From assembly GCA_903837595.1 (NCBI GenBank), contig CAILVI010000267.1, positions 21,071 to 85,070 of the forward strand: DNA of 64,000 nt, in the 5' to 3' direction. This document shows, one piece after another, positions 2,415 to 39,492 of this stretch. The first letter of the stretch is position 1, and each line of letters opens with the position of its first letter. Both the position numbers and the translations under genes were made by a program. The stretch is from an uncultured Thiodictyon sp. Its GTDB lineage: Bacteria > Pseudomonadota > Gammaproteobacteria > Chromatiales > Chromatiaceae. The notes beneath the pieces are model-generated. The model worked only from the letters and a program-made list of their open reading frames with translations. It did no database searches and was not told the DNA's origin.

Positions 2415-3104
2415 ATGATGGCGATACCTCAGATCATTCCACTGGGTGATAGTGCCGTCCTGGCCAAGTTTGATAGTGACTCCGCTGCGTCGGTCGCTAT
2501 CCAGGGCTTTTGTGCCGCGGTGCAGGCGCGGGCCTGGCCCTTTGTGCGCGACTTGGTGCCGGCATTCCGGAGCGTCTGCATTCATTATGACCCGCTGCGG
2601 CTGTATGGGCATGGCTGGACCCCAACGACCTGGTGTGCGGAGTTGGCGGTGTTGCAATGCGCGCCGGCCGGGGCGCCGGCGGCGCGTCTGCATCGGTTAC
2701 CGATCTGTTATGAGGCTGGGTTTGGTCTGGACCTGGACGCGGCTGCGCAGCAGCTGGGTGTAACGGTTGAGGCGCTGATTGAACAGCACCTGGCAGCGGT
2801 GTATACCGTGGCCATGATCGGATTCGCACCGGGGTTTCCCTATCTGGAGGGTCTGCCCGAGCGGCTTCGCCTGCCGCGTCGTGCCACGCCGCGCAGTGCG
2901 GTGCCGGCCGGCAGCGTGGCCATCGCCGAAGACCTGTGCGGTATCTATCCGGTGCAACTGCCGGGCGGCTGGCATGTGCTGGGGCGCACGCCGGTGCCGT
3001 TATTTGACATTCATCGCCCCTCACCCAGCCTGTTGCAGGCAGGGGATCGGGTGCAATTCGAGCGTATCGACTCACTCCAATTCGCGGCGCTCGGCCCATG
3101 TTGA
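2415..3104 (+). CDS. pxpB: 5-oxoprolinase subunit B (KipI/allophanate hydrolase subunit 1 family)
   Basis: The product, about 229 residues, belongs to the PxpB/KipI family. With PxpA and PxpC it cleaves 5-oxoproline (pyroglutamate) to glutamate using ATP. Family signatures seen are IPLGDSAVLAKF at the N-terminus, the central MIGFAPGFPYLEGL, LPRRATPRSAVPAGSVAIA, and the C-terminal QLPGGWHVLGRTPVPLFD. A GTG at 2394 is in frame, but GGAG directly before the ATG pair at 2415/2418 and the family N-terminus favour the later start. The stop overlaps the pxpC ATG at 3098, so the two are translationally coupled, and pxpA follows, which completes the three-subunit enzyme. Confidence 0.92.
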   Translation: MMAIPQIIPLGDSAVLAKFDSDSAASVAIQGFCAAVQARAWPFVRDLVPAFRSVCIHYDPLRLYGHGWTPTTWCAELAVLQCAPAGAPAARLHRLPICYEAGFGLDLDAAAQQLGVTVEALIEQHLAAVYTVAMIGFAPGFPYLEGLPERLRLPRRATPRSAVPAGSVAIAEDLCGIYPVQLPGGWHVLGRTPVPLFDIHRPSPSLLQAGDRVQFERIDSLQFAALGPC

Positions 3105-4096
3105 AGGTCCTGCGGGGCGGTCAACTGTCCACCGTCCAAGATGCCGGCCGCATGGGCTGGCAGGCGCTGGGCGTCACGCCCGGGGGTGCCCTGGATGCGG
3201 TGGCGCTGCGGGTGGGCAACTGGCTGGTCGGCAATGCCGATCACCTCGCGGCGATCGAAATGACCTGGGCCGGTCTACAGGTCAGCTTCACCGAGGATAC
3301 CCTGATCGCGCTTACCGGCGCACGGGCTGAGGTGTCCTGTGAGGAGCGGTCGGTGCCTTTCTGGCGGCCACTATGGATCAGTCGAGGCAGCGTGCTGCGG
3401 ATGGGCCAGGTCATCGCGGGTGCCCGCGTCTATCTGTGCGTGCAGGGCGGGATCATGGCGCCGGTGGTCATGGGTGGGTTGGGTACCGATTTGCGCAACC
3501 GCTTCGGCGGGTACGAAGGTCGTGCCTTGAAGGCGGGCGATACGCTCGCGCTCAGGCCTCAGCAGGACCGCTATCCACGTTTGCGTGTCCTGCTGCGACA
3601 GCATGGGAGCGGATTCGCCAGTCCACCCTGGCAGGTCTCGATGTGGCGTGACAGCGGCCTGCCGGGTGATCGGCCGATCCGGCTGCTGGCGGGGCCACAC
3701 CAGTCCGGATTGGGCGATCAGGGCGTTGCGACCCTGCATTCGGCTGAGTTTCGGGTGCTGCCCCAATCCGATCGCCAGGCGCTACGTTTGCAGGGCGTCG
3801 CCCTCACGGCGGCGAATGATCGGCAGCCGTCCGCCGGGGTGTGCTTCGGGGTCCTGCAACTACCGCCGGACGGTCATCCGATCCTGCTCCTGGCCGATCA
3901 TCAGACCACCGGGGGCTATCCGGTGATCGGGGTCGCGGCCAGCGTCGAGCGCACCCGGCTGGCCCAGCTCAAGCCGGGTGACAGCGTGCACTTCGTCGGC
4001 TGCGGGCAGGACGAGGCGCATCGACTCTTGCAGGAACGTGAGCGGCGCTTAATGACGATCCGACACGAACTGGCGTGGCGTGCGCAATACGGCTGA
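3098..4096 (+). CDS. pxpC: 5-oxoprolinase subunit C (biotin-dependent carboxyltransferase family, KipA-like)
   Basis: The product has 332 residues, about the usual size. It is the larger partner of PxpB and belongs to the KipA / allophanate hydrolase subunit 2 family. Signatures include LSTVQDAGRMGWQALGV, the segment PGGALDAVALRVGNWLVGN, GGLGTDLRNRFGGYEGRALK and the C-terminal QTTGGYPVIGVAASVERTRL. It overlaps pxpB by seven bases. The next gene, pxpA, follows after about 210 bases that hold a repeat hairpin (4164-4191), so pxpA may be partly uncoupled from pxpBC. Confidence 0.92.
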   Translation: MLKVLRGGQLSTVQDAGRMGWQALGVTPGGALDAVALRVGNWLVGNADHLAAIEMTWAGLQVSFTEDTLIALTGARAEVSCEERSVPFWRPLWISRGSVLRMGQVIAGARVYLCVQGGIMAPVVMGGLGTDLRNRFGGYEGRALKAGDTLALRPQQDRYPRLRVLLRQHGSGFASPPWQVSMWRDSGLPGDRPIRLLAGPHQSGLGDQGVATLHSAEFRVLPQSDRQALRLQGVALTAANDRQPSAGVCFGVLQLPPDGHPILLLADHQTTGGYPVIGVAASVERTRLAQLKPGDSVHFVGCGQDEAHRLLQERERRLMTIRHELAWRAQYG

Positions 4097-28384: not shown

Positions 28385-31300
28385 TCAATGCGCTTCATCT
28401 TTTTCCCGTACACGGCGAAAGACCTCCCGCGCCAAGTGATCCTGTGCCGCGGAGCGGAACTCGGCGTCGGTCATCACCCGGGAGAAGATCTCCTCGTTGC
28501 CCTCCATTCGGGCGATGAACAGTTCATCCAGCATGCGATCAAAATAGGACGCGAAGTTCGCGAAGTTGTTGGCACGGGCCGCTTCCGCGATGTGCTCATT
28601 GTCTTCCGCCGACGCCCGTATCTGGTCGAAGAACAGTTGATCCGCCACGGTAAAGTCGGTGCCGAAACGCTCGTTGAGGAGATCGATCAGGCTCGATAGG
28701 GCAACCGCCTCATCTTTGACCCCACCAGTGCCCACATCGGTCGGCCCCTTCAGTGGATAGGCCTCGCCCGGCGCGAGGTTGATGGAGCCCTCGGTCATCT
28801 GTTGGAGCCGGAAGAACCGCAGCGCCACCTCATCATCGAGAGCGAAACCCTGACCATCACCCGGCGGCGGGAGCTTTGCCAGCAGGTTCCGCACGAAGGC
28901 GTAGAGCCGTTCGAGGTCGCTATCCTGGTAAGGGATGATCTGCGACAGAAAGCCATAGAGATTGCGATAGGCCGTCAACTGGCCGCGAAACGTCTCGCGT
29001 TCATCTTCCTCCCGCTCCTGGAAGCGCTGCACGACGGCATCGAGCACGGCGTTCATCACCCGATGATCGCTCGCCGAGTGGTCGCGCTTGGCGCGATACC
29101 AGACCTTGGCGAAGGCGGTCACGTCCGCGGGTGTGAAGATCGCCCATTCGAGCAGGCGGTGTTGCAGCTCGGAGAGTCGCTGGGGATCGGCGTTCTCGCC
29201 GACGGGCGTCGTCTCATAATAGGGCTTGAACGCCTGGTAGATGTCGTCCTCCTCGTTGACGAAATCGAGCACGAAGGTGCGCGACTTGCCGGGCGCGATG
29301 CGGTTGAGCCGCGAGAGGGTCTGTACCGCCTGCACGCCGGCGAGCCGCTTCACCACATACATGGTCTGCAACAGGGGCTGATCGAAGCCGGTCTGATACT
29401 TCTCCGCCACCAAGAGCACCCGGTAATCGTCGCGCTCGAAGGCCTCCGGCAGCGCGCTCTCAGAAAGACCGCCGTTCATCGAGACCTCAGTGTAGGACGC
29501 GCCGGGGTCATCCGGGTCTTCGACCGTGCCCGAGAAGGCCACCAGCGAGCGAATGCCGGTGTAGCCCTGATCCTTGATGTAACGGTCAAAGGCCAGCTTG
29601 TACTTCACGGCGGCCAGGCGGGAGCCCGTGACCACCATCGCCTTCGCCCGCCCGCCCAGCTCGTGCATCACGTAGAGCCGGAAATGCTCGACGATGACGG
29701 TCACCACCTGCTCGATATTGACTGGATGCAGCTCCAGGTAGCGTGTCAAGGCCTTCGCGGCCTTCTTGCGCGGTACATTGGGGTCGTCCTCGATCTGTTT
29801 GATCAGGCCGAAGAACCGCTTGTAGGTGCTGTAGTTGGCGAGCACATCCATGATGAAGCCTTCCTCGATGGCCTGGCGCATGCTGTATTCGTGGAAGGGT
29901 GAGGCGCCGGAGGGGCCCGGCTCATCGAACAGGGCCTTGGTCTTGAACTTCGGTGTGGCAGTGAAGGCAAAGAAGCTCAAGTTGGGCTGCCTGGCCCGCT
30001 TCAGCGCATCGCGGAGCACCGCCGCCTTCGTCTCATCGGAGAGGTCGCGGTCCTCCTCGTCGGAGAGCTGGGCGGCAATCGCCGCCTCGATCCCTTCCTG
30101 GTTCAGCATGCCCCGCAGTGCCGTCGCGGTCTCTCCGCTCTGGGACGAGTGCGCCTCATCGACGATGACGGCGAAGCGTTTGCCCGCCGTATCGATCTGG
30201 ACGCCCGCGCCCTTCTTCTCCAGCGTCGACAGCGCCCGGGCGATGAAGGGGAACTTCTGAATGGTCGTGATGACGATGGGCGTGCCCTGGGAGAGTGCAC
30301 GGGCGAGCTGCTGGGTGTCCTCGTCGATCTTCTCGACCACACCGGTCTTGTGCTCGAATTGGTAGATGGTCGCCTGCAACTGTTGATCGAGCACCCGCCG
30401 GTCGGTGACGACGATGACCGAGTGAAAAACCTTCTGATCCTGGGCATCGTGCAGGCTGGCCAACCGATGCGCGAGCCAGGCAATAAAGTTCGACTTGCCG
30501 GAGCCGGCCGAGTGCTGGACGAGATAGTTCCGGCCCGCCCCATGGGCCTTGGCGTGGGCGGCGAGCTGGCGAACCCCGTCGAGCTGGTGATAGCGCGGGA
30601 AGATCATCATCTCCCTGCGCACGGTGCGTACGCCCTTGCTCGTCGTGACCTGGCGCTCCTTCACCTCCAGATGCATGAAGCGTTGCAGGATCTCCAGCAG
30701 GCTGTTTGCCTCAAGCACCTCGTCCCACAGGTAATGGGTCTTCCAGTTGCCCGCCACCGGCGGGTTGCCCGCCCCGTGATTGTTCCCCCGATTGAAGGGC
30801 AGGAAATGAGTCTCCTTGCCATTAAGCCGTGTGGTCATCCACACCTCGTCCGGGTCCACGGCGAAGTGAACCAGGGCGCGTTTCTTGAATGCGAAGAGCA
30901 GATCGCGCTCATCCCGCTGGTGCGCGTATTGATGCATGGCATCGGCGGCGCGCTCCCCGGTGAGCGGGTTCTTGAGCTCGCAGGTGACGACGGGGATGCC
31001 GTTGACGGCCAGGGTCACGTCGATGATGCAGCGGCGGTGCTGCCCATCCGCCCGCTTCAGCACCGAGGTAAAGGCGACCTGGCGGGTGATGGTCAGCCGG
31101 TTCTTGGCGTAGCTCGCCGCCGCCTCGGGGTTCATCGCGGTGTTCGGCCGGAAATAGGCCAGCCGCAGGGTCTTGCCGTAGCACTTGAAACCGTGTCGCA
31201 GGACGTGGAGCGTGCCCTTGAGTTCCAGTTCTTTGGCCAGGCTGTCGAGCACGGTCGCGGCGGTCTTGCCTCCGAGCAACGACTCCAGCGCCGCCCACTT

Positions 31301-31456
31301 GGCCGGCTGGCTGTCTTTAAGGAAGCCGGTGACATCGTCCGGGAAAAGGGCGAGCGCTTCGTCATAGGCGGTCGGACTGCGCGTCTGATAGCCGCCAGTG
31401 CTGGTCAGACCGGCCTCGATCGCTGTCTCGAAATCGCGTTCTGTGTGGGCGGACAT
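28385..31456 (-). CDS. hsdR: Type I restriction enzyme, endonuclease/translocase subunit HsdR
   Basis: The product, about 1023 residues, is the motor and nuclease of the type I complex. The N-terminal nuclease shows the ExK of a PD-(D/E)xK core in GIPVVTCELKNPLTGERAAD. The SF2 translocase follows: Walker A as QHSAGSGKSNFIAWLAHRL, motif II as VIVDEAHSSQSGETA, motif III as FFAFTATPKFKTKALF, and motif VI near TLSRLNRIAPGKSRTFVLDF. The C-terminal helical part would bind HsdM. The ATG at 31456 is chosen over an upstream TTG because TTGGGGAAA precedes it. It is the last gene of the leftward hsd group, about 490 bp after hsdS and separated from it by a broken antidote gene on the other strand. Confidence 0.93.
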   Translation of the reverse strand: MSAHTERDFETAIEAGLTSTGGYQTRSPTAYDEALALFPDDVTGFLKDSQPAKWAALESLLGGKTAATVLDSLAKELELKGTLHVLRHGFKCYGKTLRLAYFRPNTAMNPEAAASYAKNRLTITRQVAFTSVLKRADGQHRRCIIDVTLAVNGIPVVTCELKNPLTGERAADAMHQYAHQRDERDLLFAFKKRALVHFAVDPDEVWMTTRLNGKETHFLPFNRGNNHGAGNPPVAGNWKTHYLWDEVLEANSLLEILQRFMHLEVKERQVTTSKGVRTVRREMMIFPRYHQLDGVRQLAAHAKAHGAGRNYLVQHSAGSGKSNFIAWLAHRLASLHDAQDQKVFHSVIVVTDRRVLDQQLQATIYQFEHKTGVVEKIDEDTQQLARALSQGTPIVITTIQKFPFIARALSTLEKKGAGVQIDTAGKRFAVIVDEAHSSQSGETATALRGMLNQEGIEAAIAAQLSDEEDRDLSDETKAAVLRDALKRARQPNLSFFAFTATPKFKTKALFDEPGPSGASPFHEYSMRQAIEEGFIMDVLANYSTYKRFFGLIKQIEDDPNVPRKKAAKALTRYLELHPVNIEQVVTVIVEHFRLYVMHELGGRAKAMVVTGSRLAAVKYKLAFDRYIKDQGYTGIRSLVAFSGTVEDPDDPGASYTEVSMNGGLSESALPEAFERDDYRVLLVAEKYQTGFDQPLLQTMYVVKRLAGVQAVQTLSRLNRIAPGKSRTFVLDFVNEEDDIYQAFKPYYETTPVGENADPQRLSELQHRLLEWAIFTPADVTAFAKVWYRAKRDHSASDHRVMNAVLDAVVQRFQEREEDERETFRGQLTAYRNLYGFLSQIIPYQDSDLERLYAFVRNLLAKLPPPGDGQGFALDDEVALRFFRLQQMTEGSINLAPGEAYPLKGPTDVGTGGVKDEAVALSSLIDLLNERFGTDFTVADQLFFDQIRASAEDNEHIAEAARANNFANFASYFDRMLDELFIARMEGNEEIFSRVMTDAEFRSAAQDHLAREVFRRVREKDEAH

Positions 31457-31609
31457 GCCGAGTTTCCCCAAGTGTGTTCATCAATGATAACTTGGCCGCA
31501 TGGGGGCCATCGTGTCTGGGACCGCGCGCGCTCCCCTCCCGCGTAGCAAACTTGCCCTCATGTAACCGTTCGATTACGATTACCCTATGGTCACGATGAG
31601 GACTGAGCG

Positions 31610-31912
31610 ATGAGCGAGAAGATCCGCATTGCCGATTTGCCCGAATTCGACATCACCGAACACCTGGAAGACGACCAGGCCATCGCCGAGTATCTGACTA
31701 TCGTGCTGGAAGAGAACGACCCGGCGGCCTTCGCACAGGCACTCGGAACCGCTGCCCGCGCGCGCGGCATGACCGAGATCGCCAAGGCGAGCGGGATCGC
31801 GCGCGAAGCCCTCTAGGCCCTGCGCGCCGACGCACAGCCGCGTTTCGATACTATCAACCGCGTCTGTCATGCGCTGGGCGTCAAGCTGGTGGCTCAACCG
31901 ATCGAGACGTGA
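31610..31912 (+). pseudogene. Addiction-module antidote (HigA-like DNA-binding protein) with in-frame stop
   Basis: The frame from ATG 31610 gives MSEKIRIADLPEFDITEHLE, then IAEYLTIVLEENDPAAFAQA and a helix-turn-helix (MTEIAKASGIAREAL). It is then cut by TAG at 31814-31816; past the stop the same frame continues with ALRADAQPRFDTINRVCHAL and GVKLVAQPIET up to TGA at 31910-31912. In intact relatives, as I recall them, the position of the stop is a Tyr, so a single change (TAT/TAC to TAG) explains it. The usual HigB-like toxin gene is missing from the 150 bp upstream. The truncated 68-residue product would lack part of the HTH domain. It faces opposite to its hsd neighbours. Confidence 0.8.
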
Positions 31913-31944: not shown

Positions 31945-33213
31945 TCATCGCAGATCCGCAAGCTGCCCTGTGACGACTGCCGTGATCAGAGCACTACGGA
32001 ACTCGGCTAGAAGCGTAATCGTGCGATCGATCTTATCCATTTGCTCGGACATTTGTCCAAGCTCCAAGCCAAGAGCGGCAAGTATCCGAGCGATCTCATC
32101 TCTTGGCGGCAGCGGAATCGGAAGATCGGCGACGACAGTCCTCGAAATTGAAGCGAGATTCGTGGATTGAACAGCACGCCTGAAGAAGTGGAACTTCGCA
32201 TACGCGGCTTCCGTGCATCGCGCGACCCATTCTGGATCTAGCGCATTTAGTCTCACGGCAAAGACGTGATTTTGATGCAAGCAGGGAAAAATTTGACGTC
32301 TCCAAACCGCCCCTCGCCCAAGTTTGTCATTGTCCCCGCCTTCGTTCATTAGGATGTCGCCATTCTCAAGAGCGTACTTCTGGACGTCATTAGCTCTGAC
32401 TTCAATCTCTGCGATCTCGTTCAAGTCCAACCAACCGTCTTGGACGTTCGCGACCCGAAGGTATGGCAACACCACCGTTTCCTCGTTCGAGTAGGACTTG
32501 CCCTTGGTGATGCCGGAACGAACTTGGCCAAGCCGCTTCAATGGTACCGGCTCCCAATGCGCGGGGATGTCGCCGAGCCAGTCGATGCCCGAGGGTTTCA
32601 TGGGGGCGTCGGGGTTGAGGCCCTTGGTGACGGCGCGGGTGATGAGTGCCTGGCGCTTCTCGGCCAGCCGGTCTAGCAGCGCGCGCTTCTTCTCGATCAG
32701 GCCGTCGATCCGCGCGGTCTTCTCATCCAGAAATCGTGCAATCCTCTGTTGCGTGTCGAGCGAGGGCTTCGGCACCATGAAGTTCGCATAGCGCTCCGCG
32801 CTGACGTTTTGGATTGTCGATTGAATGAGGTTTGAGTCGATATCAGCCCAATAACGTGTGCTCTGAAGATACCAGTAGATATACCGCGCATCGAATTCTG
32901 CTGAGCTGCGCAGTCGGATCAAATAACCTGCAAAGCACGCTCTACCCCAGTCCTCTTTATAGATTAGAGACTTGCCAACCGTAGCGCCGCTGCGAGCCAA
33001 TAGAATATCGCCTTCCTGAAGCAGGTAAGGCTCTGCAACGCTGGGTGGGAGGGAACGAAATGTCTCTTCCCGCAATAGACCGTTGGAATCAACATCCGTG
33101 ATCCGGACAAAACGAGGCCAATCGGGATCATCAAACTCAGCTGCGGCGTTGGCGCCGTATTTGAGCGATTCGGTTGACGTGAACTTTAGACGGATTTCGC
33201 CAAAGACGCTCAT
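31945..33213 (-). CDS. hsdS: Type I restriction enzyme specificity subunit HsdS
   Basis: The product, 422 residues, has two target-recognition domains. The first ends before the conserved helical spacer FLDEKTARIDGLIEKKRALL and AEKRQALITRAVTKGLNPDA; the second starts at GIDWLGDIPAHWEPVPLKRL and ends with a second helix (MDKIDRTITLLAEFRSALIT). HsdS sets the bipartite DNA target of the methylase and endonuclease. Its ATG at 33213 overlaps the stop of the 46-codon HsdM-tail frame, so translation is coupled to that frame. The two-fold TRD layout is complete and no frameshift is seen. Confidence 0.92.
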   Translation of the reverse strand: MSVFGEIRLKFTSTESLKYGANAAAEFDDPDWPRFVRITDVDSNGLLREETFRSLPPSVAEPYLLQEGDILLARSGATVGKSLIYKEDWGRACFAGYLIRLRSSAEFDARYIYWYLQSTRYWADIDSNLIQSTIQNVSAERYANFMVPKPSLDTQQRIARFLDEKTARIDGLIEKKRALLDRLAEKRQALITRAVTKGLNPDAPMKPSGIDWLGDIPAHWEPVPLKRLGQVRSGITKGKSYSNEETVVLPYLRVANVQDGWLDLNEIAEIEVRANDVQKYALENGDILMNEGGDNDKLGRGAVWRRQIFPCLHQNHVFAVRLNALDPEWVARCTEAAYAKFHFFRRAVQSTNLASISRTVVADLPIPLPPRDEIARILAALGLELGQMSEQMDKIDRTITLLAEFRSALITAVVTGQLADLR

Positions 33214-33328
33214 GTGATGAGCCCCTTCAGCAACCCGGCAATCTTCCCTTCAAGCGTCGTAATGTCCGTCTCGATCTGATCGAGCGGGCGCGGCGGTTTA
33301 TAGACATCGAAATGCCGGTTGATCGGGA
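33210..33328 (-). repeat. Direct repeat of hsdM 3' end, copy downstream of rhuM
   Basis: About 119 bp that match the hsdM 3' end at 34429-34547 at roughly 85 percent by hand alignment, in the same orientation. Differences are mostly scattered substitutions with one diverged block of about ten bases near the middle. Together with the other copy it brackets rhuM exactly from stop codon to stop codon. Confidence 0.85.
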
Positions 33329-33350
33329 CTTCGGAGTGAACATTGGTCAT
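33210..33350 (-). CDS. 46-residue copy of the HsdM C-terminus between rhuM and hsdS
   Basis: The frame opens at ATG 33350, overlapping the rhuM stop, and ends with TGA at 33210, overlapping the hsdS start. After a short unique start (MTNVHSEV) the peptide reads PINRHFDVYKPPRPLDQI and LEGKIAGLLKGLIT. The full HsdM ends PINRHFYVYKPPRPLDRI and LEGEIAGLLKGLIA, so this is a duplicated HsdM tail. It may do no more than keep rhuM and hsdS translationally coupled, or the peptide may interact with HsdS/HsdM as the native tail does. Too short for most gene finders. Confidence 0.7.
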   Translation of the reverse strand: MTNVHSEVPINRHFDVYKPPRPLDQIETDITTLEGKIAGLLKGLIT

Positions 33351-34432
33351 GCCTGCCCCTCTCCACCTTGGCCTTTGCCTGCGGACTTCTGCGCCGGTTG
33401 CTTCCGCGCGGCACCGAGCAGTTCTGCCGACGCCTTCAAATCCTCGATATAGCGGGCTTCGGCCTCGGCCTCAGCGGCGAGGCGGCGGCGCTCGGCGAAG
33501 GCATCGTATTCCCGGTTGGCGTGGTCGAGTGCGTCCTGGTGGCTGATGCGACCCGCGCCCTGGAGCACGGGCAATTCGGTATCGTGCAGGAACTTGTCGA
33601 GAAAGCCCTCCCAATCGCCCATGCGGATGTCCTGCCGACGCTGGGCGCGGAATTCGGCCTGATCGAGGAACATGACGGTAATCCGGTTGAGGGTGTCGAT
33701 TTCCTGGCTGTCGAGGTAGTTCTTGGCGGTGCCGACATCGCGCTTTAGTAATTGGCGCCCTTTCCAGTTGGTCGCTCCCATGTTGGGCTTTTCGGCAATG
33801 GCCCGCTCGTAAACGATCTCGGCCGCTGTCAGGCCGGTGGCGGCGAAGTGCATCTTGTTCTGCACGGCGGCAAAAAAGCGCTGGGTTTCGCGCTCGCCTT
33901 CGCGGTAATCGCTGGCGAGGGCGAAGATGTCGCGGATACGCTGGTAGACTCGGGCCTCGCTGGCGCGGATGTCGCGGATGCGGGCAAGGAGTTCATCGAA
34001 ATAATCCACTGGGCCGGCGGTGCCTTTGAGCCGCTCGTCATCGAGCGTGAAGCCCTTGACCAGGTATTCGCTGAGGCGCGCGGTGGCCCACTGCCGGAAC
34101 TGAGTGCCGCGGGTGGAGCGCACACGGTAGCCGAGGGCGATGATCATCTCCAGGTTGTAATGGTCGAGGAGACGCTTGATCTGTCTCTTGCCTTCGGTCT
34201 GAACAATTAAGTATTTCTTAAGAGTTGCCTCTGGCCGCAGCTCTTCCTCTTCGTAAATGGCTGTTATATGTTGGTTTATGTTGGGGACCGAGGTGCCGTA
34301 GAGCTCGGCGATCTGGCGCTGGGTCAGCCAGACGGTGTCGCCTTCGAGCAGGACACGAATCGGCGCGGCGGCATCGTCTGCACGGTAGATCAGCAGGCTG
34401 CCCCCCGGATTTTCTTGCTCTTGCCCGCTCAT
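33347..34432 (-). CDS. RhuM-family protein inside the hsd operon
   Basis: The product, 361 residues, belongs to the RhuM (Salmonella virulence protein) family. Signature segments are VWLTQRQIAELYGTSVPNIN (a KilA/Bro-like DNA-binding-looking N-terminus), EATLKKYLIVQTEGKRQIKR, YNLEMIIALGYRVRSTRGTQ and FRQWATARLSEYLVKGF. The C-terminus is a charged helix ending in a Gln/Lys-rich tail. The biochemical role of RhuM is unknown to me; it is often found within type I restriction operons, where a regulatory or defence-related role has been suggested by position only. The start overlaps the hsdM stop and the end overlaps the HsdM-tail start, both by 4 bases. Confidence 0.87.
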   Translation of the reverse strand: MSGQEQENPGGSLLIYRADDAAAPIRVLLEGDTVWLTQRQIAELYGTSVPNINQHITAIYEEEELRPEATLKKYLIVQTEGKRQIKRLLDHYNLEMIIALGYRVRSTRGTQFRQWATARLSEYLVKGFTLDDERLKGTAGPVDYFDELLARIRDIRASEARVYQRIRDIFALASDYREGERETQRFFAAVQNKMHFAATGLTAAEIVYERAIAEKPNMGATNWKGRQLLKRDVGTAKNYLDSQEIDTLNRITVMFLDQAEFRAQRRQDIRMGDWEGFLDKFLHDTELPVLQGAGRISHQDALDHANREYDAFAERRRLAAEAEAEARYIEDLKASAELLGAARKQPAQKSAGKGQGGEGQA

Positions 34433-34547
34433 GCGATCAGCCCCTTCAGCAGCCCGGCGATCTCCCCTTCCAGTTGACTGATGTCCGCCTCGATCCGATC
34501 GAGCGGGCGCGGCGGTTTGTAGACATAGAAGTGCCGGTTGATCGGGA
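34429..34547 (-). repeat. Direct repeat of hsdM 3' end, native copy
   Basis: The last about 119 bp of hsdM, the partner of the copy at 33210-33328. Recombination between the two would remove rhuM and leave an intact hsdM whose stop overlaps the hsdS start. Confidence 0.85.
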
Positions 34548-36606
34548 TCTCGTAACCGACCTTGGTCTTCTCATAATCCACCCAGGCATCCGGCACATGG
34601 GGCAGCACCTCGCGTGCGATGTAGGCGTCGATCTCACCCCGGAAGGCCGCTATCAGCCGGTCGTTGGGCTTGTCCGGGCCGAAGTCCATGGGCAGCGGCA
34701 GCGCGGTGCCGGTCGGGAGTGGAATGTTCTCGGTGTCCCGCAGCTCGCTGTCGGGCTCCGCTTGGCCCTTGGCGTCGCGGCAGATCGCGGCGCCCGGGTC
34801 GCGCTCGCCCAGCGCAGCGAAGATGGCCTTCTTGATGGGGGCCGGGAGCTTGAGCCCGGCGCGCTTCGCGGCCTTCGTCAAATCGGCATCGAAGACCGCC
34901 CGATCCCGATAGCGCCCCTTGCCTTCGAGGGTCCCGACCGCGGCGCGGATGGCATCCTGGAGCTTGCGCCCCTCCTCGATCTCCCGTTCCACCTCGCCCT
35001 TGTCCTTACGCTTCTTCGATGTGGCCAGGTTGGCAAAGGCGGACTGGTCGTCGAGCCGGGCGATGCGCTCGGGGTTGGCCGCGAAATTCATCCGCAAGGG
35101 GCGCTCGACCGTCACCTTGAGGAAGCCGAATTCGCGGTTCTCGAAGAGGCGGGAGATGACGCGGGTCTCGGTCTGTCCGTCGATCTGGACCACGGCCGTC
35201 TCGCCGTCCTGGTAATTGCCGTAGACGCGGGCGAGGTGGCGAATCTGGTCTTCGGTGATCTCGTTGCGCTTGTTGTTGAGGCTCTTCTTCATCTTTTGGA
35301 AGAAGTGGGTGCCGTCGATGAGCTGTACCTTGCCGCGCCGCTCGGTGGGCTTGCGGTTGGTCACCAGCCAGACGTAGGTGAAGATGCCGGTGTTGTAGAA
35401 GAGCTGGTCCGGCAGGGCGACGATCCCCTCGAGCCAGTCGTTCTCGATGATCCAGCGGCGGATCTCGCTCTCGCCCGAGCCCGCGCCGCCGGTGAAGAGC
35501 GGCGAGCCGTTGAAGACGATGGCGATCTTGGAGCCGGGCCGGTCCTCGTCCCCCTGCGTATAGGGGTACATCTTGGAGATCATATGCTGGAGAAACAGCA
35601 GCGATCCGTCGTTGATGGCGGGCAGTCCCGCACCGAATCGGCCGGCGAAACCCAGGGTGTTGTGCTCGTGCTCGAGCGCGTCCTTCTGGTCCTTCCATTC
35701 GACGCCGAAGGGCGGGTTGGCCTTCATGTAGTGGAAGTGCCAGCCCTCGAAGCCGTCGCGGGTCTTGCCGTCGCCCAGGGTATCGCCGAGGACGATGTTG
35801 GCGGTGTCCTCGTCCTTGATGAGCATGTCGGAGCAGCAGATGGCCCAGGCTTCGTCGTTGTACTCCTGGCCGTAGAGGGCAAGCTGCGCCCGGTCATTCT
35901 GGGAGAGGATCAGCTTCTCGGATTCGGAGAGCATGCCGCCGGTGCCGCAGGACGGGTCGTAGATGGTGCGGAAGATGCCGGGCCTGTAGACATCCTGCTC
36001 GCCGGTGTAGATGAGGTTCGCCATCAGGCGGATGACCTCGCGGGGCGTGAAGTGATCGCCGGCCTCCTCGTTGGCCTGTTCGTTGAAGCGCATCACCAGG
36101 TGCTCGAACACGTAGCCCATCTGGAGGTTGTCGATCCGCCTGGGATGAAGATCCACCTCGGCCATGGCCTTGACGATGGTGAAGAGGCGGTTGCTGGCGT
36201 CCAGCTTCTCGATCTGGTCGGCGTACTTGAAGCGCTCGAAGATGCGCCGCGCGGTGGGCGAGAAGCCGTTGATGTAGGAGACCAGGTTGGGCGCGATGTT
36301 CTCGGCGTCGCCGAGGAGCCGTGCGAAGGTGTAGGGGCTGGTGTTATAGAGCGGGTGCTTGCGGTTCGGGTCGGCGGCCTTGCCGAGCAGCCGATCCATG
36401 GCCGCCTCCGGCATCTGCTGGGCCTCCAGTTCGCCGCGTCGCTTGAGAACGGCATCCTTGGTCGGTTCCAGCACGCAGTCGAGCCGGCGCAGGACGACCA
36501 TGGGGAGCATCACCAGGCGATATTGCGGCGGGCGGTAGGGACCCCGGAGCCGGTTCGCGATCTCCCAGATCTTGGCCTTAAGGTCTTCGTGCGTTTGAAT
36601 GTCCAC
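34429..36606 (-). CDS. hsdM: Type I restriction enzyme modification methylase HsdM
   Basis: The product, about 725 residues, is the N6-adenine methyltransferase subunit. The AdoMet motif I is YDPSCGTGGMLSESEKLIL and the catalytic motif IV is KANPPFGVEW (NPPF). An N-terminal helical domain (LKAKIWEIANRLRGPYRPPQ) precedes the methylase fold, and a long C-terminal extension makes it larger than EcoKI HsdM. I start it at GTG 36606 (MDIQTHEDLK), because AAGGA lies about nine bases upstream; an ATG 12 codons earlier has no such site. It is the first gene of the operon hsdM-rhuM-tail copy-hsdS. The stop overlaps the rhuM start. Confidence 0.93.
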   Translation of the reverse strand: MDIQTHEDLKAKIWEIANRLRGPYRPPQYRLVMLPMVVLRRLDCVLEPTKDAVLKRRGELEAQQMPEAAMDRLLGKAADPNRKHPLYNTSPYTFARLLGDAENIAPNLVSYINGFSPTARRIFERFKYADQIEKLDASNRLFTIVKAMAEVDLHPRRIDNLQMGYVFEHLVMRFNEQANEEAGDHFTPREVIRLMANLIYTGEQDVYRPGIFRTIYDPSCGTGGMLSESEKLILSQNDRAQLALYGQEYNDEAWAICCSDMLIKDEDTANIVLGDTLGDGKTRDGFEGWHFHYMKANPPFGVEWKDQKDALEHEHNTLGFAGRFGAGLPAINDGSLLFLQHMISKMYPYTQGDEDRPGSKIAIVFNGSPLFTGGAGSGESEIRRWIIENDWLEGIVALPDQLFYNTGIFTYVWLVTNRKPTERRGKVQLIDGTHFFQKMKKSLNNKRNEITEDQIRHLARVYGNYQDGETAVVQIDGQTETRVISRLFENREFGFLKVTVERPLRMNFAANPERIARLDDQSAFANLATSKKRKDKGEVEREIEEGRKLQDAIRAAVGTLEGKGRYRDRAVFDADLTKAAKRAGLKLPAPIKKAIFAALGERDPGAAICRDAKGQAEPDSELRDTENIPLPTGTALPLPMDFGPDKPNDRLIAAFRGEIDAYIAREVLPHVPDAWVDYEKTKVGYEIPINRHFYVYKPPRPLDRIEADISQLEGEIAGLLKGLIA

Positions 36607-36650: not shown

Positions 36651-36841
36651 TGCATGCTTCAGGTGCACCGCGCTCGCGGCGGTGGCGTTCTTCTTCTGGT
36701 CAAGCAGCATGCGGACGACGGTACGCGGGCGGGCTTACCGGGCCCGGAGGTGCGCTGTCCCGGGGGTCGGCGATGGGCCGGATTATGGCCAATCTCCGGC
36801 CCGCTGACCATTGCGACGCCCCAATTCGGATGCGGGCTGAC

Positions 36842-37256
36842 CCAGGGTTTCCTCTCCTCCTCGGATGTCGCAGGGGACCCAAGGACGGCGGCGGGGGAGT
36901 TGCCGCCGTCTTCCAGGGACTCCGGGAAGCGCGGGTCCGTGGCCGGCTAACGCTCGGGGGACTCCATGGAGCCTGGCAGGGAGGGGACGGAGTCCTCGGG
37001 GGACTCCGCGGACGACTCGCGGAAGACCATGAAAAAATAAAACAAACAATATTTTGCATCATCCTTCCGCGAACCCCGACCCCAGGGGAGTCCGTCGATA
37101 CCTCCAGGGACTCCGCGACGCTCTCGGGGGAGCCATGGAACTATCCCAGGGTCTAAAGGCGCACCCCAGGGGAATCCATGAGCAGCCCCAGGGAACTAGC
37201 GGAGATTCCGGGGTAGTGCGTCGGTATCCCCGGACTATACTTGAATTGCGCAGGGG
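36842..37256. repeat. Degenerate repeat array with a period near 21 bp
   Basis: A motif of the form CCAGGGGACTCC or CGGGGGACTCC recurs about every 21 bp or a multiple of it: near 36871, 36892, 36913, 36955, 36996, 37082, 37103, 37125, 37146, 37166, 37188, 37208, 37228 and 37250. An AT-rich break lies at 37029-37058. The period equals seven codons, and one frame over 37054-37344 reads as RRYLQGLRDALGGAMELSQG and similar pseudo-heptads. No intact gene spans the array. The rest of the 36607-37371 gap shows nothing besides the palindrome at 36637. Confidence 0.6.
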
Positions 37257-37371
37257 TGTCGGGGACTGTCTCGGTGGACACCATGCCAAATCCATTGCCT
37301 CCACCGCGGCGCCTGGTTCCATCCTGCGAGGACCATCCGTTTAACCGCGAACGATAAGGAGTGCAGCCAAA

Positions 37372-37992
37372 ATGTCTAACTCCGATTTCATCCCTAACTC
37401 GGACCACGACTTACTGGTTTGGGCGGAAAATTTGCATGCCAAGCTGGCAGCCAATCCCGCCGCCTATGGTGTGACCGCCGAGGAGGTCGCTATCTTGGGC
37501 GGGGCAAATGCCGATTTTCGTGCCAAGAATGCCGCAGTCGCGGAGATCAACACCACCGCCAAGCGGATCACCGCCGAGAAGGATCACAGCCGGGGGACCC
37601 TCATGTCCCTGGGCCGGGGACTCGCGCGGCGTGTGAAGGGGCATGCGGGTTATACCGAGGCAGCGGGTGCCGACCTGGGGATTGTCGGCCATAAGATCAG
37701 CTTCGACCCCGCCACGGCCAAGCCCATCCTGAGCGGCACCGACAAGACCGACGGCGCGGTCGAGTTGCGCTTTCCCAAGCTCGGGACCGAAGGCGTGAAT
37801 ATTTACTGGCAGCGCGAAGGGCAGACGACTTGGCTCCTGGTGGGGCACGCCAACCACTCTCCCTACACGGACAGCCGCCCGCTGCTCGAACCCGGCAAGA
37901 CCGAGTTGCGCCGCTACACGGCAGTCTATGTGATCAACGACAAGGAGGTTGGGCAGTTCAGTGATGTCGTCGAGATCACCTGTGCCCCGTGA
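37372..37992 (+). CDS. Hypothetical protein with C-terminal fibronectin-like domain
   Basis: The product, 206 residues, has no signal peptide or membrane segment. The N-terminal half is helical (DHDLLVWAENLHAKLAANPA, then VAEINTTAKRITAEKDHSRG). After a Pro-containing linker the C-terminal half looks like a beta-sandwich (GAVELRFPKLGTEGVNIYWQ, then LRRYTAVYVINDKEVGQFSD), of the fibronectin-III-like kind. The ribosome site AAGGAG lies 12 bases before the ATG. No named family recognised, though similar helical-plus-beta proteins occur widely as hypothetical genes. It lies just after the 21-bp array. Confidence 0.7.
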   Translation: MSNSDFIPNSDHDLLVWAENLHAKLAANPAAYGVTAEEVAILGGANADFRAKNAAVAEINTTAKRITAEKDHSRGTLMSLGRGLARRVKGHAGYTEAAGADLGIVGHKISFDPATAKPILSGTDKTDGAVELRFPKLGTEGVNIYWQREGQTTWLLVGHANHSPYTDSRPLLEPGKTELRRYTAVYVINDKEVGQFSDVVEITCAP

Positions 37993-38070
37993 TGGGCTTG
38001 ATCATCACTGCGGCCACCCGGCACCGATAGGGTGATGGCTTGCCCCACTACCGAGTTGTGCCGTGCCGTT

Positions 38071-38134
38071 GGAGCGCTTTAGCAGGCGCATCGTGACACT
38101 GCTGCGGCAGTGTCACGCCTGTACTGGGCGCTCC
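38071..38134. repeat. Long imperfect hairpin
   Basis: Inner arms GTGACACTGC (38093-38102) and GCAGTGTCAC (38107-38116) pair perfectly over a TGCG loop; CAGGC / GCCTG and outer GGAGCGC (38071-38077) / GCGCTCC (38128-38134) extend the symmetry. It lies downstream of the gene ending at 37992. No T-run follows, so it is more likely a REP-type element than a terminator. Confidence 0.7.
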
Positions 38135-38239
38135 GCGCCCTGATATCTCACGCAAGATCGCTTTTTCTCCGAGTCTCTGCGCGCCGCGGGTTCCGACCGG
38201 GACGCATTGCCGCTTGCCGAGCCCCTGCCCAAGCCGGTC

Positions 38240-38346
38240 GTCGGGTTAGGCGCGCCCTTTCACCCGCGCCACCCGTGCTGACGGTAGCGTGCGCGGTAAC
38301 CCGCCATGGCGCTGCCGTCGGGTTACGCTTCGCTAACCCGACCTAC
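38240..38346. repeat. Second copy of the GTAGGTCGGGTTAG composite repeat, inverted
   Basis: Read on the minus strand it begins GTAGGTCGGGTTAGCGAAGC with GTAACCCGAC, and ends with GCGCGCCTAACCCGAC, as the element at 22301-22420 does, while the middle differs. It lies 38 bp before the next gene. Confidence 0.8.
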
Positions 38347-38384
38347 ACGCTCGACGCTGACCAGATAGCCGCTTAGGAGTAATC

Positions 38385-38681
38385 ATGACAAACGTCATTC
38401 GCCTCGTCGATGCTGACGGCACCGACCAGCGACACATCACCGCGGAGATCACAAGCACGGGAGACCTCCTGTTGTCCGGGCAGGATCTCGGCCCGCTCGT
38501 CCGCGAGGTTTGGGGGGATTCGGACTACGAGTACTGGCTCACAGTCCCCGCAAGTGAGAAGGACCGGGTGCTGCTGATGCTCCTCGAAATCGCCTATGCC
38601 GGAGACGAGCAAGCCGTTAACAAGCTACGAGAAGCCCTTGATTCCCGAGGCATCCCCTGCAAGTTCGATTCCTACGCCTAA
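38385..38681 (+). CDS. Small hypothetical protein
   Basis: The product is a 98-residue soluble acidic protein. It contains GDLLLSGQDLGPLVREVWGD, then YEYWLTVPASEKDRVLLMLL. TAGGAG lies just before the ATG. The beta-rich start followed by a helical stretch and the aromatic YEYW motif resemble small immunity-like proteins, but I cannot name a family. It lies between a repeat and the integrase remnant, in the accessory region. Confidence 0.6.
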   Translation: MTNVIRLVDADGTDQRHITAEITSTGDLLLSGQDLGPLVREVWGDSDYEYWLTVPASEKDRVLLMLLEIAYAGDEQAVNKLREALDSRGIPCKFDSYA

Positions 38682-38745
38682 GCGATACCCGAGTCGGGCA
38701 ATGACCACCGCAAAGCGCGTCAGCTAACCACTGCTTCGGGGGGGA

Positions 38746-39256
38746 ATACCTGCCCACAGGCTTGCAGGGCTCTATGGGCGGTTTCCAGTGCCCCCCCAAG
38801 CTTCAATGCGACGGACCACGGCCAGCAGGTCAGGGGCGGTTATCCCGCCCGTCGGCCGGGGGCCGATCCAGGGGAACACGTCAACCTCGAATCGACGGAT
38901 GATCTTTTCAGCATGGGCCGGTACCCACTTCGTGGGGTTCCGCCCGAACCACTCAGGGGTGATGGCCTCGAAGGTATCAATCCCCGCGGTCTTGGTGGCC
39001 TTGCGCGCGGCGCTTGGGTCAATGTCTTTGGCGATCGGTTCGCGGGCTTCGTCGCGCCGGGTGCGGGCCGCTTTCAGGGTCACGCCTGGGTAAGCGGCCA
39101 GCGCCATCAGCTTCTCTTTACCGTCCATGCGGTACTTGAAGCGTCAGAGCTTGGTGCCATTCGGGTTGACCAGCAGGTAAAGCCCGCGCTCGTCCGCCAG
39201 CTTGTAGGGTTTGCAGTGGGCTTGGCGTTGCGGATGGCGGTATCGGTCAGGGGCAT
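38746..39256 (-). pseudogene. P4-type phage integrase, degraded N-terminal fragment
   Basis: Reading leftward from ATG 39256 the pieces of a DUF4102-type integrase appear in order: MPLTDTAIRNAKP, then after a frameshift YKLADERGLYLLVNPNGTKL, a TGA where a Trp is expected, then RFKYRMDGKEKLMALAAYPG, EARKATKT-like helices and FEVDVFPWIGPRPTGGITAP. Another frameshift in a G-run (near 38795) restores LETAHRALQACGQVF, after which homology stops near 38746. The catalytic core with the Arg-His-Tyr residues is missing. It lies 160 bp from the 3' end of tRNA-Arg, the position expected of an integrase of a tRNA-targeted island. Confidence 0.85.

Positions 39257-39415: not shown

Positions 39416-39492
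<77 letters not shown>

What the first reader, a model, noticed from the sequence alone, without database searches (positions are those of the whole stretch)
33210..34547. rhuM is a cassette flanked by direct copies of the hsdM 3' end
The last about 119 bp of hsdM (34429-34547) recur after rhuM (33210-33328) in the same orientation at about 85 percent by hand alignment. Both copies end with a stop overlapping the next start codon (rhuM, then hsdS). A single event such as unequal recombination or cassette insertion could have put rhuM into an older hsdM-hsdS operon while keeping translational coupling, and recombination between copies would remove it cleanly. That would make rhuM a switchable module of the restriction system.
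Basis: partly seen in the sequence, partly recalled or inferred. Interest (0 to 1): 0.72.

Follow-up and report, generated by a model that had tools for sequence, protein, structure and literature searches.

The report
Toxin-gene slot inside restriction operon
In this relative of purple sulphur bacteria, a toxin-like gene (rhuM) sits inside a DNA-restriction operon followed by a small copy of the end of the methylase gene, and related genomes hold other toxin-type genes, or nothing, at the same spot, which suggests that the spot is a slot for exchangeable genes.

Summary
The repeat is real: a 141-nt unit (46 codons plus stop), 81.6% identical ungapped, alignment score 154 against at most 30 in shuffles. 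Copy B is a small open frame whose start overlaps rhuM's stop and whose stop overlaps hsdS's start.

Of 13 close operons found (HsdM at least 80% identical; 210 family genomes), 6 have hsdM overlapping hsdS directly and 7 carry cargo between: rhuM in 3, toxin-antitoxin-type genes in 4. Five of the 7 have a clear tail copy, one a diverged short frame, one a 21-nt stub. Cargo toggles between nearest relatives, with two occupied/empty pairs whose flanks match.

Clean excision between the copies is not supported: in all four nearest pairs the first part of hsdS differs too. All four toxin-antitoxin operons share one TRD1, close versions of which none of the other nine has. So cargo, tail copy and TRD1 seem to be exchanged as a block. 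Copy B is not clearly derived from this hsdM.

Best reading: the hsdM-hsdS junction is a cargo slot, and the tail copy a translation relay bearing hsdS's ribosome-binding site. Expression, peptide function and RhuM activity are untested.

The parts
34429..36606 (-). hsdM (type I methylase; GTG start at 36606, longer ATG frame from 36642)
   Evidence: Pfam N6_Mtase 9.5e-54, HsdM_N 7.2e-22; PADLOC MTase_I 1.7e-262
34429..34569 (-). tail A: last 46 codons plus stop of hsdM, with a Shine-Dalgarno-like GAAGGGG before the rhuM start
33347..34432 (-). rhuM, the cargo gene; ATGA overlap with hsdM
   Evidence: Pfam Virulence_RhuM 8.7e-107; PADLOC candidate PDC-S05 5e-142
33210..33350 (-). tail B: 46-codon open frame copying the hsdM tail; ATGA overlaps with rhuM upstream and hsdS downstream; Shine-Dalgarno-like GAAGGGG before the hsdS start
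31945..33213 (-). hsdS (specificity subunit)
   Evidence: Pfam Methylase_S 1e-16, 2 stretches
28385..31471 (-). hsdR (restriction subunit)
   Evidence: Pfam HSDR_N 6.2e-13, SWI2_SNF2 9.3e-27; NCBIfam hsdR 1.4e-56, below its cut-off

Best explanation
The hsdM-hsdS junction of this type I restriction operon is a recurrent cargo slot for toxin-antitoxin and defence-type genes, and rhuM is its occupant here. The hsdM 3' end carries the ribosome-binding site and stop-start overlap (ATGA) of the next gene. When cargo sits in the slot, a second copy of that 3' end often stands in front of hsdS as a 46-codon relay cistron, so ribosomes can pass hsdM > rhuM > relay > hsdS. In the close relatives, cargo is gained, lost and swapped by recombination between hsd operons, with one end near the hsdM 3' end and the other at or beyond the TRD1/central-region border of hsdS, so cargo, tail copy and TRD1 move as one block. 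Shown by sequence: the repeat, overlaps, cargo variety, toggling on the HsdM tree, pairs with matching flanks, hsdS breakpoints in two pairs. Inferred: translation of the relay, its coupling role, the recombination route, and RhuM as a toxin or defence effector.
For: Repeat and boundaries. Of 13 operons found with HsdM at least 80% identical in 210 family genomes, 6 are without cargo and 7 with cargo: window rhuM; L134 rhuM (interrupted); L143 rhuM; L132 HicB-type; L133 HicB-like (87% DNA to L132 over 619 nt) plus PSK_trans_fac; L146 RHH plus doc_partner-like plus Fic/Doc; L151 stretches matching the L132/L133 HicB gene (96 and 89% DNA) and the L146 Doc stretch (78%). HsdM tree: at least 6 cargo/no-cargo changes; four sister pairs differ in cargo, three at 100% bootstrap and L133/L144 at 89/88. 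Matching flanks: L143/L147 96.2% over 4,177 nt from about 2 kb upstream of hsdM to its last codons (L147's contig ends soon after); L132/L148 colinear on both sides. HsdS of L132/L148: 7-40% per 30-residue window up to 180, then 93-100% to the end; L133/L144: 17-50%, then 93-100% to 390, lower at the end. TRD1 shared by 4 of 4 TA-cargo operons (72-90% in pieces for L151, at least 79% otherwise); of 9 others only L144 gives a distant match, 25%; chance of that split 0.0014, ignoring relatedness. All 20 starts examined have a Shine-Dalgarno-like element (-6.3 to -9.8 against a mean of -2.98 for 497 background ATGs). Translational coupling of hsdM to hsdS is stated for EcoKI (PMC3510504, abstract and passages).
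Against: A tail copy is not required: the Roseomonas mucosa plasmid operon has hsdM-rhuM-hsdS-hsdR with 4-nt overlaps and no room for a copy; L220 and L223 have rhuM without one, and L225, L226, L227, L229, L230, L239 and L041 carry intervening genes with no significant copy. L143's frame is at the null (33 against a maximum of 34) and L151's stub is not significant alone (22 against a mean of 20.9). Single Shine-Dalgarno scores are unremarkable (each matched or beaten by 2-14% of background). In the window/L145 and L143/L147 pairs the empty partner's hsdS frame is short (231 and 209 aa) and mostly unlike, so the right-hand breakpoint cannot be placed. In L137, L138 and L237 copies are nearest their own hsdM, so local duplication occurs there. 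L133 has a 90-nt identical run between copies, suggesting gene conversion.
Confidence: 0.58

Rival explanations
1. One reading: one local duplication of this hsdM tail accompanied rhuM's insertion, and recombination between the copies removes rhuM cleanly, making it a switch.
For: Direct repeats in the right orientation and frame; empty operons exist; copies in L137, L138 and L237 are nearest their own hsdM, and L133 shows a 90-nt identical run.
Against: Window copy B is no closer to its own hsdM than to other genomes'; longest identical run 22 bp; in all four nearest pairs the first part of hsdS changed too; the single tail of the empty relative matches mostly copy A (L145: 17 of 26 informative sites A, 4 B, 5 neither) or a mosaic (L148: 10 A, 10 B, 1 neither), not a clean A-to-B switch.
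Confidence: 0.12
2. Tail B is a small protein: a free HsdM C-terminal helix made next to HsdS that docks on it and tunes assembly or stoichiometry.
For: Intact 46-codon frame with start and Shine-Dalgarno-like element in the window, L132 and L134; dN/dS between copies 0.28 (window), 0.12 (L132), 0.21 (L134); in EcoKI models the HsdM tail lies along HsdS helices and ends near the start of the TRDs (PMC3510504, passages).
Against: dN/dS is 0.55 between the L133 copies and 0.30-0.42 between B copies of different loci, against 0 to 0.31 for hsdM tails and their consensus; the peptide is largely rewritten in L143 and cut to 28 codons in L146, while the terminal ribosome-binding site stays. Whether dN/dS is significantly below 1 was not computed.
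Confidence: 0.15
3. Tail B is an inert relic of past operon recombination, kept by chance.
For: Copies decay (L143, L146, L151; L136's copy has an in-frame stop); cargo operons without a copy exist.
Against: An open frame and both stop-start overlaps persist in three rhuM operons with long divergence (window, L134, L143); a Shine-Dalgarno-like element stands before hsdS in every copy scored.
Confidence: 0.15

Closest known systems
Pneumococcal tvr locus (SpnIV), PMC6265443 (passages read)
   Same: Type I locus with a Phd-Doc-like pair (tvrAT) inside, direct repeats, and hsdS segments exchanged. L146's antitoxin matches TIGR02609, the family named there for the Phd homolog (2e-10, below the curated cut-off).
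   Different: tvr has a tyrosine recombinase and its repeats lie in the hsdS segments; tvrATR lies between hsdM and hsdR with hsdS segments on both sides; it switches within a strain. Here the repeat is the hsdM 3' end, no recombinase was found among the scanned operon genes, and within-strain switching is untested.
PrrC in the EcoprrI operon, and RhuM/DOC genes in R-M loci (PMC3710099, passages; PMC12707154, passages)
   Same: A toxin gene embedded in a type I operon. PMC3710099 proposes RhuM as a toxin domain occupying a position similar to DOC in R-M neighbourhoods; here RhuM and Doc occupy the same slot in related operons.
   Different: The passages read do not describe an hsdM tail copy or cargo-TRD1 block exchange.
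TgvAB, type I-embedded system of Vibrio cholerae VPI-2 (PMC12409362, passages)
   Same: Defence genes nested in a type I operon.
   Different: By locus numbers tgvAB lies between hsdS and hsdR; no tail copy is described in the passages read.
EcoKI hsdM-hsdS overlap and the HsdM-tail idea for type IB evolution (PMC3510504, abstract and passages)
   Same: Overlapping, translationally coupled hsdM and hsdS; the suggestion that DNA for the HsdM tail was incorporated into hsdS and duplicated.
   Different: There the tail becomes part of HsdS; here it is a separate small cistron behind a cargo gene.

Membership tests
Type I restriction-modification system | HsdM, HsdS and HsdR in one operon | tested here: met
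   Pfam matches for all three; order hsdM-rhuM-tail-hsdS-hsdR
Type I restriction-modification system | methylation and restriction activity | not testable with these tools
   no expression or methylome data
RhuM family | Virulence_RhuM domain over the curated cut-off | tested here: met
   356.5 bits against a cut-off of 33.7
RhuM family | toxin or defence activity | not testable with these tools
   proposed in PMC3710099 (passages); PADLOC lists it as a candidate; the only PDB sequence match has E 0.48
Phase-variable, recombinase-driven type I locus (tvr-like) | site-specific recombinase in the locus | tested here: not met
   none among the Pfam-scanned operon genes; an integrase fragment lies about 2.1 kb beyond hsdM
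Phase-variable, recombinase-driven type I locus (tvr-like) | repeats that recombine within a strain | tested here: inconclusive
   repeat present, longest identical run 22 bp; no reads available
Translationally coupled gene pair | stop-start overlap with a Shine-Dalgarno-like element before the overlapped start | tested here: met
   hsdM|rhuM, rhuM|tail B and tail B|hsdS
Translationally coupled gene pair | expression of the second gene depends on translation of the first | not testable with these tools
   needs a bench test

The most novel reading that the evidence does not exclude
Toxin or TA cargo and DNA specificity are exchanged together: a block of cargo, hsdM-tail relay and TRD1 moves between hsd operons, so a bacterium that changes its restriction specificity also changes the toxin wired into the operon, and the relay keeps the swap functional whatever the cargo.
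Probability: 0.35. Interest if true: 0.75.

Novelty: new variant of a known kind. Interest (0 to 1): 0.6.

Why it matters
Toxin genes nested in restriction operons are known, but how they enter and leave without breaking the coupled hsdM-hsdS pair is not described in the passages that I read. Here related occupied and empty operons, two pairs with matching flanks, make that testable: they name the slot, the repeated element and, in two pairs, the breakpoint in hsdS, and suggest that specificity and cargo switch together. The repeat also gives a search handle for overlooked toxin or defence genes in type I operons.

Tried and rejected
Target-site duplication by a transposon: not favoured for the window, since the unit is an in-frame gene end of 141 nt and no transposase was recognised among the scanned operon genes. 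In L237 and L222, however, Y1 transposase-like genes lie near tail copies, and the two L237 copies share similar sequence upstream, so another origin there is open.

Recent cassette transfer of rhuM: not favoured, since RhuM and HsdM diverge alike.

Empty site at the window's own position: the stretch beyond hsdM (window 36800-38700) was not found as a unit in 7 congeneric genomes; their listed matches are pieces of under 200 nt, in a list that was cut.

Wider distribution: two tail matches within 5 kb on one contig occurred only in the window's own genome among 369 class genomes and among 398 phylum genomes. They occurred in 7 of 210 family genomes, own included, and four more genomes (G545, G560, G562, G515) showed copies by another route. 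53 plasmid records gave one place each; phages none. Diverged copies may be missed, the queries came from this family or from a profile of mainly family and class members, and each genome's candidates were only partly scored (one search scored at most 5 per genome).

Selection of loci: L132-L151 were chosen from tail hits, L220-L239. One search examined the window and 23 of the 41 loci at hand (L132-L151, L220-L239, L041); left out were mostly operons without cargo and loci cut by contig ends or lacking an hsdM-hsdS gap. Its 12 significant of 24 are not a frequency.

RhuM fold: AlphaFold2 model mean pLDDT 77.7, pTM 0.52. The best Foldseek matches are DdrC chains of Deinococcus (best E 1.4e-3, TM 0.22 and 0.30): a weak lead. 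The PDB sequence search gave one chance-level match.

Paper searches (open-access library only): I saw no listing about an hsdM tail copy or about cargo between hsdM and hsdS; I read passages of five papers. The term sets were held by no paper.

Full report
What is there. On the minus strand the window holds hsdM (36606-34429), rhuM (34432-33347), a 46-codon open frame (33350-33210), hsdS (33213-31945) and hsdR (31471-28385). The joints hsdM-rhuM, rhuM-frame and frame-hsdS are ATGA overlaps. The 46-codon frame is a copy of the end of hsdM: 115 of 141 nt and 34 of 46 residues identical, 104 of 118 aligned nt in a local alignment with score 154 against at most 30 in 200 block shuffles. Identity stops at the unit's edges (0.30 upstream, 0.33 downstream). 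A left edge at the same codon of the hsdM tail is seen in L132, L133 and L134; in the window, L132 and L134 that codon, AAG in hsdM, reads ATG and is the likely start.

Related operons. In 210 family genomes, 13 operons were found, this one included, whose HsdM is at least 80% identical to it (at most 5 candidates scored per genome). In 6 of 13 (L144, L145, L147, L148, L149, L150) hsdM directly overlaps hsdS. In 7 of 13 there is cargo: rhuM in the window, L134 and L143; TA-type genes in L132, L133, L146 and L151. Family matches: HicB (L132), PSK_trans_fac (L133), RHH_1 and Fic/DOC (L146); doc_partner below its cut-off (L146). L151's genes were placed by DNA similarity to L132, L133 and L146. 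The first gene of L132 reads like HicA to me but matched no family. L144 and L149 have hsdM in two frames, the L151 match lacks the first part of hsdM, and L134's rhuM is interrupted by an inserted frame that reads to me like a transposase (not searched). L140 and L141, cut by contig ends, are not counted.

Tail copies. In the 7 cargo operons the copy is clear in the window, L132, L133, L134 and L146 (scores 154, 185, 196, 107, 70; largest shuffled scores 30 to 32). L143 has a diverged 39-codon frame with both overlaps but a score at the null (33 against 34). L151 keeps only the last 21 nt (17 of 21), not significant alone. Outside this group copies occur in L135, L136, L137 (two extra copies), L138, L222, L234 and L237; their cargo includes SLFN_AlbA_2 (L135), Abi_2 (L234), and a separate rhuM with DUF1016_N (L222). 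Operons with intervening genes and no significant copy: L220, L223, L225, L226, L227, L229, L230, L239 and L041, and the Roseomonas mucosa plasmid, where rhuM overlaps hsdS.

History. On the HsdM tree the cargo state changes at least 6 times among 13 operons, and four sister pairs differ in cargo: window/L145, L143/L147 and L132/L148 (100% bootstrap) and L133/L144 (89/88). L143 and L147 are 96.2% identical from about 2 kb upstream of hsdM to its last codons, then part; L132 and L148 match upstream, in hsdR and downstream. In all four pairs hsdS differs in its first part. In L132/L148 it is 7-40% identical per 30-residue window to residue 180 and 93-100% from there to the end (the last, short window is 20 of 20 residues, printed as 0.67); in L133/L144 17-50% and then 93-100% to residue 390, 77% and 13 of 17 after that. 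In the other two pairs the empty partner's hsdS frame is short and mostly unlike (one window reaches 0.77 in window/L145). The four TA-cargo operons share one TRD1: 127-134 of 160 residues among L132, L133 and L146, and 72-90% in two frames for L151. Of the nine others only L144 gives a distant match (25%), and L134's split hsdS gives none. That split has a chance of 1 in 715 by label shuffling, ignoring relatedness. The simplest account is exchange of a block holding cargo, tail copy and TRD1. RhuM differs between operons about as much as HsdM, so rhuM is probably old here.

Whose tail is copy B? Against 14 hsdM tails of the group, the window's copy ranks its own second (81.6 against 82.3), L132 fifth, L134 twelfth, L133 first, the last with a 90-nt identical run that suggests gene conversion. 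In the second group the copies of L137, L138 and L237 are nearest their own hsdM (for one L237 copy in a tie with the other copy), L135's is not. So local duplication happens, but the window's copy is not shown to be one; it may have come with a foreign hsdS.

Function of the copy. Each of 20 starts examined has a Shine-Dalgarno-like element, -6.3 to -9.8 against a mean of -2.98 for 497 background ATGs; 2-14% of the background is as strong. What is kept even in decayed copies is the last stretch with that element and the overlap. dN/dS is 0.28 between the window's copies (0.12, 0.55 and 0.21 in L132, L133 and L134) and 0.30-0.42 between B copies of different loci, against 0 to 0.31 for hsdM tails and their consensus: relaxed, perhaps not free. 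Coupling of hsdM and hsdS is described for EcoKI (PMC3510504, passages).

RhuM. Pfam Virulence_RhuM, PADLOC candidate PDC-S05. PMC3710099 proposes it as a toxin found in R-M loci in a position like that of DOC (passages); the present set shows RhuM and Doc in the same slot of related operons. The AlphaFold2 model is of middling quality (pTM 0.52) and its best Foldseek match, DdrC, is weak.

Verdict. Observation confirmed, interpretation partly supported, a new variant of known toxin-in-restriction-operon arrangements.

Noticed in passing
window 39416-39492 (-) and 38772-39128 (-): A tRNA-Arg(CCT) gene next to a truncated tyrosine-integrase frame (Phage_int_M, Arm-DNA-bind_3), about 2-3 kb beyond hsdM: the operon may lie in the remains of a tRNA-linked island.
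   Followed up: partly
window 31610-31912 (+): Antitoxin-like gene of the dnstrm_HI1420 family between hsdS and hsdR, opposite strand, broken by an in-frame stop; the part before the stop scores 1.4e-21.
   Followed up: no
L237, operon orientation about 2060-2210 and about 3070-3215: Two partial hsdM-tail copies that share about 60 nt of similar sequence upstream, with a Y1 transposase-like gene between them.
   Followed up: partly
L137: Three hsdM tails in one operon, the extra two 95.7% and 92.9% identical to the first over 141 nt.
   Followed up: partly
window 38240-38346 and 38091-38143: Short repeats matched many times in this genome and in congeneric genomes.
   Followed up: no
window 33347-34432 (-): The RhuM model resembles DdrC, a Deinococcus DNA-damage protein, weakly (E 1.4e-3, low TM).
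   Followed up: no
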